Source: Candidatus Aenigmatarchaeota archaeon
Lineage (GTDB): Archaea; Aenigmatarchaeota; Aenigmatarchaeia; GW2011-AR5
Assembly (NCBI GenBank): GCA_018304585.1
Contig: JAGVVY010000029.1
Span: 1-49,896 of the forward strand
Length of the DNA stretch: 49,896 bases
Direction of reading: 5' to 3'
A program made the position numbers and the translations under genes. Below, piece after piece: positions 8,618 through 26,163 of this stretch (positions within the stretch are counted from its first letter, which is position 1; every line of letters starts with the position of its first letter). The notes beneath the pieces were generated by a model. That model saw only the letters and a list, made by a program, of their open reading frames with translations. It did not search any database and was not told the DNA's origin.

Positions 8618-9247
8618 TCATTTGCTCTTTGACACCCCGTTTTTGGGGCAGATCCCCGCGAGGGCGCACCGCGAGCACAACGGCACCGGCGCCTTGCATA
8701 TTGCCCGCCCGTGCTCTATCAACAGGTACGTCACCTTGTTCCATTCGCTTCGCGGGAACGCTGCCATGAGGTCTTTTTCTATCTTTTCCGGATTTGAGTT
8801 TTCCGTAAAACCCAGGCGAAATGCAAGGCGTTTTACGTGGGTATCGACGGCGATCCCTTCGTTCTTGCCGTAAGCGTTGGACAGCACGATGTTCGCCGTC
8901 TTCCTTGCGACGCCCGGCAGCTCGAGCAGCCCCTCCATCGTATCAGGGACTTTTCCGCCGTGCTTCCCAACGATGATTTTGCAGGCATCTTTTATGTGCT
9001 TTGCCTTCGTTCGGTAAAATCCGGCGCTTTTTACCATGCCTTCCAGGCCCCGTATATCGGCAGAGGCGAAGTCTTTGGCGGTCCTGTATTTCGCGAATAA
9101 CGCAGGCGTGATCCTGTTTACCATCTTGTCGGTGCACTGGGCGGAAAGCATGACCGCAACCAGAAGCTGCAACGGGTTTGCGTGCCGGAGGGCTATTTTC
9201 GCAGAAGGATATAGTTTTCTTAGCTCCTGTATAACTTTACTTTTCAT
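8618..9247 (-). CDS. nth: Endonuclease III (HhH-GPD, 4Fe-4S)
   Basis: LPGVARKTANIVLSNAYG...AVDTHVKRLAFRLGF and C-terminal C-X6-C-X2-C-X5-C cluster (CKAPVPLCSRCALAGIC). Confidence 0.95.
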   Translation of the reverse strand: MKSKVIQELRKLYPSAKIALRHANPLQLLVAVMLSAQCTDKMVNRITPALFAKYRTAKDFASADIRGLEGMVKSAGFYRTKAKHIKDACKIIVGKHGGKVPDTMEGLLELPGVARKTANIVLSNAYGKNEGIAVDTHVKRLAFRLGFTENSNPEKIEKDLMAAFPRSEWNKVTYLLIEHGRAICKAPVPLCSRCALAGICPKNGVSKSK

Positions 9248-9335
9248 GAACCAGTATGCCCTCTTTTTGCCGCCATAATTGAGTATCCGTATTTCCGCCG
9301 GTATAACTTTACTTTCCATGAACCAGTATGCCCTC
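9229..9335. repeat. Unit A: 35-bp direct repeat (9229-9263, 9301-9335; 1 mismatch) around a 37-bp insert
   Basis: gtataactttactttTcatgaaccagtatgccctc / gtataactttactttCcatgaaccagtatgccctc. Confidence 0.9.
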
Positions 9336-10444: not shown

Positions 10445-11119
10445 ATGCAGCCCGAAGAAGTCCTTAGAAGGCTGAAGCACATATCCAGGCCGGAAGTGCT
10501 TGCAAGCATGGCGTCCTTCGGCATCCGCGCCGAGAAGGCCTACGGAGTCACCGTCCCTCTCATCAGGAAGATGGCCAAAGAGCTGGGGAAAAATCACATG
10601 CTCGCCCTGCGGCTTTGGGACACCGGCGTTCACGAAGCAAGGATACTTGCAACCATGCTGGCAGAGCCTGAAAAGATGACGGAGAGGCAGATGGAAAGAT
10701 GGGTGTCGGAAATCGCTTCGTGGGACGTAGGGGACCATTTTTGCGGCAACCTTATGGTAAAAACCCCTCTTGCATACGACAAGGCGTTTGATTGGAGCTC
10801 GAGAAAAGACGAGTTCGTCAAGCGCGCGGGCTTCGCCCTGATGGCTTATCTTGCCGTCCATGACAAGGCCGCGCCTGACAGGGCAATGGAAGCGTTCTTT
10901 GCCCCGATACGGAAGCAGTCCGGCGACGACAGGAATTTCGTGAAAAAGGCCGTCAACTGGGCGCTGAGGCAGATCGGAAAAAGAAACACCCATCTCAACA
11001 AGCTGGCCATTCAAGTGGCGCATGACATAGGACTTATAGACGCGCCCGCGACAAAATGGATAGCTTCCAACGCCCTCCACGAACTGCAGAGCGACGCGGT
11101 GAAGAAACGCCTGTCATGA
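10445..11119 (+). CDS. DNA alkylation repair protein (AlkD-like, HEAT-like)
   Basis: 224 aa; YGVTVPLIRKMAKELGKNHMLALRLWDTGVHEARILATML...SWDVGDHFCGNL. Confidence 0.9.
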   Translation: MQPEEVLRRLKHISRPEVLASMASFGIRAEKAYGVTVPLIRKMAKELGKNHMLALRLWDTGVHEARILATMLAEPEKMTERQMERWVSEIASWDVGDHFCGNLMVKTPLAYDKAFDWSSRKDEFVKRAGFALMAYLAVHDKAAPDRAMEAFFAPIRKQSGDDRNFVKKAVNWALRQIGKRNTHLNKLAIQVAHDIGLIDAPATKWIASNALHELQSDAVKKRLS

Positions 11120-11390
11120 ATAATAGTTGGCAAATTCTTCTTCACTGATTTTTGCCAGCTTAAGAACGGATTTGAGAGTTCTAGGATCTAGGTAGTACTA
11201 TGTAAGGTTTCTTATCCTGCATTCGTTGGGCGTGGATTTGAGAGTTCTAGGATCTAGGTAGTACCCAACATAAAGAGGTAGCCGACACCGTTTTTCCGCA
11301 AACCGGATGGCTTCCTCTTTGCCGTACGACTTTGAACCCGAATTTATTGCAAAGAATTATAATGCACTCGCTTCCGGAAACCAATTTAAG
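11114..11390 (-). pseudogene. hicA: HicA-like toxin, disrupted
   Basis: Hand translation: LVSGSECIIILCNKFGFKVVRQRGSH ... (other frame) YYLDPRTLKSVLKLAKISEEEFANYYS*; interrupted by repeat unit B and a frameshift, no ATG start. Confidence 0.7.
11168..11264. repeat. Unit B: 31-bp perfect direct repeat (11168-11198, 11234-11264) around a 35-bp insert
   Basis: ggatttgagagttctaggatctaggtagtac twice; insert tatgtaaggtttcttatcctgcattcgttgggcgt. Confidence 0.95.
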
Positions 11391-11598
11391 CCTGTGCAAC
11401 TTCCGCCACCTCAAAAGTGGTCAAGATGGGATGCGCTGATTTTTCTGCCGGAAATTCTTCAAGATACAGTTCCGTGGCTTCCTTCAGATTCTTCAAGGCA
11501 CCCTCTATTATGGAACCTTGGCTTGCCGTCCCTACCTCGGGGCATTCGGCTACATACATATTATCTTCTTTGTAGAGTATGGCCGTAAAAGTCTTCAT
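11386..11598 (-). CDS. hicB: HicB-family antitoxin
   Basis: MKTFTAILYKEDNMYVAECPEVGTASQGSIIEGALKNLKEATELYLEE. Confidence 0.85.
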   Translation of the reverse strand: MKTFTAILYKEDNMYVAECPEVGTASQGSIIEGALKNLKEATELYLEEFPAEKSAHPILTTFEVAEVAQA

Positions 11599-11754
11599 GC
11601 TAATAGATAATCGTTTGTCATTAAAATGCATTACATCCGCTTGTCGCATTATGGCCGAACTTATTTTGCCGCTTGGGGGGGGGGTTCCAATTATCGGGTG
11701 GCTACAAAATCCATGCATATAGTCGCCTATTGAGCATTTTCTTCAGGCTTAAAT

Positions 11755-11794
11755 AATCCTATATATAGGATTAAACAATACTAAAAATAGGATT
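11755..11794. promoter_or_regulatory. Candidate operator: palindrome AATCCTATATATAGGATT (11755-11772) plus half-site aaataggatt (11785-11794)
   Basis: Perfect 18-bp palindrome with an extra half-site just upstream of the HTH-nucleotidyltransferase pseudogene. Confidence 0.5.
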
Positions 11795-17758: not shown

Positions 17759-18589
17759 ATGGGCATTGCATATCTTGGATTCAACGACGCCCTCTCTCCG
17801 CATGCCCAGATGGCCGCGGATGAGGCGATGCTCGTTTGTCAACCCGCGCTGAGATTTTACGGCTACAAAGATACGGCCGTCATTCTCGGGAGAAACCAGC
17901 ACCCGTCTATTGTATCCGATGACGCATATCCTCTGGCAAGAAGAATTACCGGGGGCACGGCAACACTGGAAAAACCTGGCGATGTCCGGTGGGCGTACTC
18001 GTTTCCGAGCGAATCGTCCCTACGGGAAATGAATCGGCATGTTTGCGGGCTCCTGACGCAGTCGCTGCAGAACGCGGGAATTCCAGGCGCATATGCTGAC
18101 CCGGAAACTTCTACCGTCAAGCTGGACGGCAAAATAATCGGGGGGCATGCCAGATGCATAAAGAACGGCATGGCATTTGCGCACGGCATCATAGCGGTTA
18201 CGCCATATTCCCCGCTGCAAGTGGGCCGGGCAATACGCATGAGGCCCGGTGAAGAACAGCTCATGCAAAATATGCCGGATTTGTCTCTGGCCATGGGGGC
18301 GGCGCCCCAAGAGGCCGCTGCAACCATAAGGGCATCAATGCTGGAAACCGTGTCAGGAGGCAGATATGACATGGCCTGTTTAGCCGAACTTATGTCAACT
18401 CCGGAGTATCGTCAAGCCCTTAAAAAGCACGAAAGCCCCGCGTGGATAAAAAACGGCAGCCCGCTTCCTGCACTCCCGGATTCCGATGTGCTTGTAGTTG
18501 ACGAAGATGGCATAACACAGCTCCTCACGAAAACCGGACATTGTTTCTATTCCATGTACAAGGACTCAGAGGTCGCGGCATTGCAGTGA
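17759..18589 (+). CDS. lplA: Lipoate-protein ligase A-like (BPL/LPL fold)
   Basis: ADEAMLV...LGRNQHP...LARRITGGTATLEKPGDVRWAY. Confidence 0.8.
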   Translation: MGIAYLGFNDALSPHAQMAADEAMLVCQPALRFYGYKDTAVILGRNQHPSIVSDDAYPLARRITGGTATLEKPGDVRWAYSFPSESSLREMNRHVCGLLTQSLQNAGIPGAYADPETSTVKLDGKIIGGHARCIKNGMAFAHGIIAVTPYSPLQVGRAIRMRPGEEQLMQNMPDLSLAMGAAPQEAAATIRASMLETVSGGRYDMACLAELMSTPEYRQALKKHESPAWIKNGSPLPALPDSDVLVVDEDGITQLLTKTGHCFYSMYKDSEVAALQ

Positions 18590-18690
18590 GTTTTATAACC
18601 GTTCCATAAGGTAGTATTTTAGCGTTGGTTTTATTCAGAGCTATTTTTTTGTCATTGCAGTGAGTTTTATAACCGTTCCATAAGGTAGTA
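18579..18690. repeat. Unit C: 38-bp perfect direct repeat (18579-18616, 18653-18690) around a 36-bp insert
   Basis: cattgcagtgagttttataaccgttccataaggtagta twice; insert ttttagcgttggttttattcagagctatttttttgt. Confidence 0.95.
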
Positions 18691-18699
18691 AATACAAAT

Positions 18700-18812
18700 G
18701 CCGAGATGGCGGAGCTTGGTCCAACGCGCACGCCTGGAAATTCATGATGCGTCATGAACGAAGAAAGCGTGTGAGCCTTGTGCTCGCGCAGGTTCAAATC
18801 CTGCTCTCGGCG
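18700..18812 (+). tRNA. tRNA-Ser(GGA) with an intron at 37/38 (about 26 nt)
   Basis: GCCGAGA...TCTCGGC acceptor, long variable arm, GCAGGTTCAAATCCTGC T-arm, anticodon loop CTGGAA^intron^A. Confidence 0.9.
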
Positions 18813-25597: not shown

Positions 25598-26095
25598 TTG
25601 ATGTCAGAACTCAGAAAAATCGTAAGATTCATGGATACCGACATAGACGGCACTCTAAAGACCGGAAAGGCCCTGCGAAGAATAAAGGGCGTCGGCTTCA
25701 CGTTCTCAAGAATTTCCTGCATGAAAGCCGGCATAAGCGAGGATCGTAAGATAGGCGAGCTGTCTGCTGACGAGCTGAAGACGCTTCAGAACGCGATAGC
25801 AAGCCCCGCAGTGCCTGCGTTCCTTCTCAACAGGAGGAAGGACATGGAAACGGGCAACGACGTTCATCTTACTAAAATAGCATTGGACTTTGCCAAAAGG
25901 GAGGATATAAACCTTCTGAAAAGGATAAAGTCCTACAAGGGCCTGAGGCACGAACTTGGCCAACCGGTGAGGGGACAGCGCACGCGCAGCTCGTTCAGAA
26001 CGAACACCAGCGTGGGCGTCAGCAAGAAGGCGGTGAAGGAGAAATCCGCGCCCAAGAAGGCGGAAGCCGCTGCGCCGGCGCCCGCGAAGAAGTGA
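25598..26095 (+). CDS. rps13: 30S ribosomal protein uS13
   Basis: ALRRIKGVGFTFSRISCMKAGI...GLRHELGQPVRGQRTRSSFR. Confidence 0.96.
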   Translation: MMSELRKIVRFMDTDIDGTLKTGKALRRIKGVGFTFSRISCMKAGISEDRKIGELSADELKTLQNAIASPAVPAFLLNRRKDMETGNDVHLTKIALDFAKREDINLLKRIKSYKGLRHELGQPVRGQRTRSSFRTNTSVGVSKKAVKEKSAPKKAEAAAPAPAKK

Positions 26096-26163
26096 TGATC
26101 AATGGGACATTTGTATATTTTGAACAATAAAATGCCGGCGAAGAAGTGATTATTAATGGGACA
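26080..26163. repeat. Unit D: imperfect 30-bp direct repeat (26080-26109, 26134-26163; 3 mismatches) around a 24-bp insert
   Basis: gcccgcgaagaagtgatgatcaatgggaca / gccggcgaagaagtgattattaatgggaca. Confidence 0.85.

What the first reader, a model, noticed from the sequence alone, without database searches (positions are those of the whole stretch)
11168..11264. Unit B: perfect 31-bp duplication with a 35-bp insert interrupting a hicA-like toxin gene
On the minus strand the repeat encodes YYLDPRTLKS of a HicA-like C-terminus. Removing one repeat plus the insert restores GYYLDPRTLKSVLKLAKISEEEFANYYS*. With the insert the frame reads LKSTPNECRIRNLT* (TAG). This is strong polarity evidence that repeat plus insert was added to a pre-existing gene, not that a tandem repeat partly decayed. 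It would inactivate the toxin while hicB stays open, although a further frameshift and a missing ATG show more decay.
Basis: partly seen in the sequence, partly recalled or inferred. Interest (0 to 1): 0.78.

Follow-up and report, generated by a model that had tools for sequence, protein, structure and literature searches.

The report
Stray CRISPR spacer inserted in hicA
A tiny archaeon's CRISPR memory-writing machinery most likely pasted a 35-base snippet of the cell's own RNA-polymerase gene into an unrelated toxin-antitoxin gene by mistake, and about twenty such misplaced insertions lie scattered over this genome and its sister genome.

Summary
In detail: window 11168-11198 and 11234-11264 are identical 31-bp copies around a 35-bp insert, inside a hicA remnant. 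The insert is not mobile DNA. It is a 36/36 copy of this organism's own rpoB. A congeneric Aenigmatarchaeota genome (G002) has an intact HicA gene at the same place with one repeat copy and no insert, so polarity is settled. Unit B is not alone. The genome holds about a dozen dispersed repeat-insert-repeat units and G002 about seven more. Their spacing clusters at 65-68 and 71-78 bp, and nearly all have an empty site in the other genome. G002 carries a type I-B cas operon with a CRISPR array of 30-bp repeats and 35-41-bp spacers (spacing 65-71), which matches unit B as 30 + 36. The MAG itself shows no cas1, but two of its contigs end exactly at the borders of the missing cas region, in tracts about 99% identical to G002. 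Best explanation: off-target spacer integration by a CRISPR adaptation complex ('neo-CRISPR', a known but rarely reported natural event), with a self-derived prespacer. The larger spacing class, whose inserts begin or end with a T/A run, may come from a second adaptation module. Not proven: the integrase in this genome.

The parts
11168..11198 (.). Unit B, first copy of the duplicated target (31 bp; 30 bp if the boundary base is given to the insert)
   Evidence: exact repeat; single-copy equivalent in G002
11199..11233 (-). Unit B insert, 35 bp, copy of the organism's own rpoB (C22:1904-1939, coding sense = window minus strand)
   Evidence: 36/36 identity; orthologous rpoB segments in G001 89% and G002 86%
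11234..11264 (.). Unit B, second copy of the duplicated target
11114..11399 (-). hicA-like remnant interrupted by unit B, plus a separate frameshift; intact orthologue in G002 C1:260617-260835
   Evidence: alignment; G002 protein hits PF07927
11386..11598 (-). hicB-like open reading frame, intact, overlapping the hicA start
   Evidence: position next to hicA and open frame; only weak Pfam DUF7387 match
9226..9335 (.). Unit A: same architecture, 35-38-bp repeat (95-97% identical), insert 34-37 bp starting TTTTT; upstream of a Bud32-like gene
   Evidence: empty site in G002
18579..18690 (.). Unit C: same architecture, 38-bp perfect repeat, 36-bp insert starting TTTT; 10 bp upstream of a tRNA gene
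   Evidence: tRNA 18700-18812 by Rfam RF00005

Best explanation
Unit B is an off-target spacer integration ('neo-CRISPR' event). A CRISPR adaptation complex (Cas1-Cas2 with Cas4, type I-B) loaded with a ~36-bp fragment of the cell's own rpoB attacked a chromosomal site in hicA as it normally attacks the first repeat of its array. It joined the fragment to the two strands about 30 bp apart. Gap repair then duplicated the 30-31 bp between the nicks, leaving repeat-spacer-repeat inside hicA. Shown: insertion polarity, source of the insert, size match to a congener's array, and genome-wide recurrence. Inferred: that the integrase is Cas1-Cas2, that this genome encodes it in its unassembled gap, and the strand-transfer steps. 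The unit is probably a scar rather than a working array: its repeat is not the native CRISPR repeat, and its spacer would target the cell's own rpoB.
For: (1) Perfect 31-bp duplication around 35 bp; insert 36/36 identical to own rpoB. (2) The congener G002 has one copy and no insert in an intact hicA. (3) About 12 units in own genome and about 7 in G002 share the architecture. Exact repeat pairs (>=22 bp, gap >=15) with spacing 60-80 are 9 of 15 and 7 of 11, against 5.5% expected if uniform, P 2e-8 and 4e-7. Inserts are unrelated to each other, and flanks are continuous in the other genome for nearly all. (4) G002 has Cas7-Cas5-Cas3-Cas4-Cas1b-Cas2 and an array of 30-bp repeats, spacers 35-41 bp, spacing 65-71. 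Unit B spacing is 66 = 30 + 36. (5) Own contigs C14 and C12 end exactly at the two borders of the G002 cas region, in 98.9% and 99.3% identical tracts (genome average 83.8%), so the locus is probably present but unassembled. (6) Inserts begin TTT or end AAA in 7/8 large-spacing and 4/9 small-spacing units, against 5-6% of random 36-mers: a PAM-like selection. (7) No such unit in 295 kb of a family member without detectable cas1.
Against: No cas1, cas2 or cas4 is detected in the MAG itself; presence is inferred from contig ends. Resemblance of target sites to the native repeat is only marginal (unit B p 0.046, M 0.029; combined p 0.057 for the small class). The I-B array explains the 65-68 class but not the 71-78 class. 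Unit B itself lacks the TTT/AAA end. Most other inserts have no identified source.
Confidence: 0.86

Rival explanations
1. Repair of staggered double-strand breaks: ~30-nt overhangs were filled in and a stray short DNA fragment was ligated between them, giving duplication plus filler without any integrase.
For: The insert of B is self DNA, as filler DNA often is; no integrase is seen in the MAG.
Against: Tight, two-mode spacing and insert lengths across about 20 events in two genomes, PAM-like insert ends, and equality with the I-B repeat and spacer lengths are not expected of random breaks.
Confidence: 0.06
2. A small mobile element (MITE, casposon-like or other transposon) with a long target-site duplication.
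For: Dispersed insertions with target-site duplications.
Against: Inserts share no sequence with each other and no terminal inverted repeats; B's insert is a piece of rpoB. Casposon duplications are ~14-15 bp (own knowledge), not 30-38.
Confidence: 0.02
3. A functional CRISPR mini-array or CreTA-like ectopic CRISPR RNA guarding the TA locus.
For: Repeat-spacer-repeat at a toxin-antitoxin gene; ectopic repeats with such roles exist (PMC9458426, abstract).
Against: The repeat is former hicA coding sequence, not the native CRISPR repeat (no match within 8 mismatches of the G002 repeat in the MAG), and the spacer matches the cell's own rpoB perfectly.
Confidence: 0.02
4. Assembly or library artefact (chimeric reads joining rpoB to hicA).
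For: MAG assembled from metagenomic reads; raw reads not available here.
Against: The same architecture recurs in two separately held genomes with different inserts, exact spacer-like sizes and perfect duplications. A chimera would not duplicate 30 bp of target.
Confidence: 0.03

Closest known systems
Off-target ('non-canonical') spacer integration / neo-CRISPR loci (Nivala, Shipman and Church 2018, Nat Microbiol 3:310; paper not held, known from memory and as cited in PMC11788318 and PMC9456107)
   Same: Spacer-length fragment inserted outside the array with duplication of a repeat-length target; chromosomal source possible
   Different: Those were mainly forced by Cas1-Cas2 overexpression in E. 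coli, with a few natural cases (from memory: Yersinia pestis, Sulfolobus islandicus). Here about 20 natural events in two DPANN archaeal genomes, most with an empty site in the other genome, one splitting hicA, and two size classes
Canonical type I-B CRISPR array of the congener G002 (NC_groundwater_1116, JACQID010000006.1)
   Same: 30-bp repeat, 35-41-bp spacers, spacing 65-71
   Different: Unit B's repeat is hicA sequence, present twice only, with no leader and no cas genes adjacent
Ectopic spacer acquisition within an array (e.g. Streptococcus thermophilus, PMC7999890)
   Same: Integration at a non-standard place
   Different: That is inside a genuine array at existing repeats; here outside any array
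Casposon / Cas1-solo insertion
   Same: Cas1-family integration with target-site duplication
   Different: Requires element ends and gives short duplications; neither is seen

Membership tests
Off-target CRISPR spacer integration (neo-CRISPR) | Insertion into a pre-existing sequence (empty site in a relative) | tested here: met
   G002 orthologous hicA uninterrupted, single copy
Off-target CRISPR spacer integration (neo-CRISPR) | Target duplication equal to the native repeat length | tested here: met
   30-31 bp against a 30-bp repeat in the congener's array
Off-target CRISPR spacer integration (neo-CRISPR) | Insert of native spacer length, copied from other DNA | tested here: met
   35-36 bp, 36/36 copy of rpoB; native spacers 35-41 bp
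Off-target CRISPR spacer integration (neo-CRISPR) | cas1-cas2 in the same genome | tested here: inconclusive
   Not in the 82.5%-complete MAG; contigs end at the borders of the region that holds them in the congener
Off-target CRISPR spacer integration (neo-CRISPR) | Target resembles the native leader-repeat | tested here: inconclusive
   Unit B p 0.046, class combined p 0.057
Canonical CRISPR array | Several copies of one conserved repeat beside a leader or cas genes | tested here: not met
   Two copies only, no relation to the native repeat, no cas genes nearby
Transposon / MITE / casposon | Element ends (terminal inverted repeats) or repeated insert sequence | tested here: not met
   Inserts unrelated to each other; B insert is rpoB
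HicA toxin (PF07927) | Profile match of the undisturbed gene at this locus | tested here: met
   G002 orthologue E 3.6e-15, 56.3 bits against cut-off 27; the window copy is a pseudogene

The most novel reading that the evidence does not exclude
In these Aenigmatarchaeota a second, unidentified Cas1-family module (37-38-bp duplications, inserts starting with TTT that keep a PAM-like end) and the I-B module disperse self and relatives' DNA over the chromosome as a continuing mutational process at about one fixed event per 70-130 kb, so that CRISPR adaptation acts as a genome-shaping insertional mutagen rather than only as immunity.
Probability: 0.25. Interest if true: 0.82.

Novelty: new member of a known kind. 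Interest (0 to 1): 0.62.

Why it matters
Off-target spacer integration is well shown only with overexpressed Cas1-Cas2, and natural cases are few. Here a natural lineage carries about 20, most with an empty site in a sister genome. In one the source is exactly known (self rpoB) and the hit gene is a toxin. That gives natural data on target choice, prespacer choice (TTT ends), and the mutational cost and rate of keeping an adaptation module, and on how new CRISPR loci could begin. It also warns that such units can be mistaken for mini-CRISPR arrays or mobile elements.

Tried and rejected
Cas1 by Pfam in own genome: none; by tblastn with G002 Cas1/2/4: none; with Cas8/7/5/3: none. Exact 20-22-mers of three inserts (M, D, J) in IMG/VR: 0 hits each. 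Twelve inserts against phage records: only chance-level hits. Sixteen inserts against 19 family genomes: sources only for g, partly e and D. G002 array spacers against own and G002 chromosomes: no protospacers, so no PAM could be derived. Repeat-to-native-repeat similarity: only marginal. G001 lacks the B locus in its 70%-complete bin; only its rpoB matched. Literature: no paper found for Aenigmatarchaeota Cas1; Nivala 2018 is not held. Rejected: mobile element, decayed tandem repeat, functional mini-array. Weak units E, L, N, a, d (short or imperfect repeats, odd insert lengths) were not counted in the statistics on insert ends.

Full report
Observation. The two 31-bp copies (11168-11198, 11234-11264) are identical, and 35 bp lie between them. 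The sequence occurs only here in the 825,503-bp MAG, which has 33 contigs and is 82.5% complete; the window is contig C2. The window holds two more units of the same build: A (9226-9335) and C (18579-18690).

What the insert is. A search of the assembled own contigs found a perfect second place for the insert, C22:1904-1939, 36 of 36 bases (confirmed by an independent search). It lies inside rpoB (frame ...AVRTVTPNECRIRNLTYASP...). The rpoB segment is conserved in the two congeners (89% and 86%), so the direction of copying is rpoB to hicA.

Polarity. In the congener G002 (contig JACQID010000006.1, Candidatus Aenigmatarchaeota archaeon NC_groundwater_1116) the same place holds an uninterrupted gene matching PF07927 HicA_toxin (E 3.6e-15), with one repeat-equivalent and no insert. 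It most plausibly begins at a TTG overlapping hicB, and the window has the same TTG at 11399. The 'missing ATG' is therefore not decay, but a separate frameshift is.

Genome-wide recurrence. Scanning all own contigs for close direct repeats gave about a dozen dispersed repeat-insert-repeat units, with spacing 65-68 (B, G, H, I, J, K, M) or 71-78 (A, C, D, F, and weaker E, L). G002, read whole, has b and e (66-67), c, f, g, h (71-78) and weaker a and d. Among exact repeat pairs of at least 22 bp separated by at least 15 bp, 9 of 15 (own) and 7 of 11 (G002) have spacing 60-80, against 5.5% if uniform (P 2e-8, 4e-7). In 468 kb of control loci from other organisms there were two such pairs, both in one locus. 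Flanks of nearly every unit are continuous in the other genome with a single repeat copy, and both directions occur. Unit C is aligned on one side only. Unit M sits in a tract 99.7% identical to G002, yet only own has the insert. Inserts are unrelated to each other. Unit h of G002 is a 37/37 copy of a G002 gene (an FAD-dependent-reductase-like frame), and g is 94% identical to a Cdc6/Orc-like gene (gene names by eye, not by profile search).

Link to CRISPR. G002 has a type I-B locus: Cas7, Cas5 and Cas3 by Pfam, Cas4b, Cas1b and Cas2b by PADLOC and NCBIfam, and a large first frame in the position of Cas8 that no Pfam model recognises. Its array has repeat GTTTGAAGAGTACTTTTGTAGTATTGAAAT (30 bp) and 19 spacers of 35-41 bp, mode 37. 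Unit B, read as 30 + 36, has these dimensions. G002 also keeps a truncated second cas1 (C2:18017-18598). No other of the 19 family genomes shows cas1, and 295 kb of one of them (G012) has no unit.

Why the MAG lacks cas1. G002 C1:134697-151790, which contains the whole cas operon, array and TrpRS, has no counterpart in the MAG apart from a dispersed ~90-bp repeat. Contig C14 starts exactly at its left border, and contig C12 ends exactly at its right border, inside SerRS. Both contig ends lie in tracts 98.9% and 99.3% identical to G002, against an average of 83.8%. The simplest reading is that a ~22-kb tract with the CRISPR locus is shared by the two species and failed to assemble in this MAG. 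This is inference.

Signature of prespacer choice. Inserts begin with TTT or end with AAA in 7 of 8 clean units of the large class (P 1.5e-8) and 4 of 9 of the small class (P 0.001). Random 36-mers do so in 5-6% of cases, and genuine G002 array spacers in 1 of 19. The T-run was noticed before it was tested, so these P values are somewhat optimistic. Random break repair would not be expected to do this. It also suggests that the large class comes from a different adaptation module than the I-B one. Unit B belongs to the small class and lacks such an end. The resemblance of target sites to the native repeat is marginal (B p 0.046, M 0.029, h 0.020), and I do not lean on it.

Conclusion. The best account is off-target spacer integration by a CRISPR adaptation complex, with unit B carrying a self-derived prespacer from rpoB. 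The kind is known (Nivala et al. 2018, as cited in PMC11788318 and PMC9456107). The number of natural events, their empty sites and the DPANN setting are what is new. The unit disrupts hicA, but order relative to the frameshift is unknown. It is most likely an inert scar. The integrase in this genome is inferred, not shown.

Noticed in passing
own contig C19:14378-14542 (L024): Unit I has three identical 29-bp repeats and two identical 39-bp inserts, as if a neo-CRISPR unit had been duplicated by recombination between its repeats.
   Followed up: partly
G002 C1:144201-144289 (L061); own C29, C4, C1, C10, C23, C5: A dispersed ~90-bp repeat lies between cas4 and cas1 in G002 and in at least eight places of the own genome; possibly a MITE or small RNA element.
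   Followed up: no
own C12, C14, C29, C4, C23, C26 against G002: Seven alignments of 0.5-3.6 kb are 98-99.7% identical between two species that average 84%, including both sides of the cas locus: recent exchange or shared mobile DNA.
   Followed up: partly
G002 C2:18017-18598 (L063): Truncated second cas1 (C-terminal part only), possible remnant of another adaptation module.
   Followed up: partly
window 18700-18812: tRNA gene found by Rfam (RF00005) but missed by ARAGORN, probably because of an intron; unit C lies 10 bp upstream.
   Followed up: partly
window 11745-11794 and 11676-11685: A 22-bp imperfect tandem repeat (2.3 copies) and a run of G just upstream of hicB.
   Followed up: no
window 26084-26163: 26-bp repeat (92%) around 28 bp, spacing 54, absent in G002: an insertion of different size class.
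   Followed up: no
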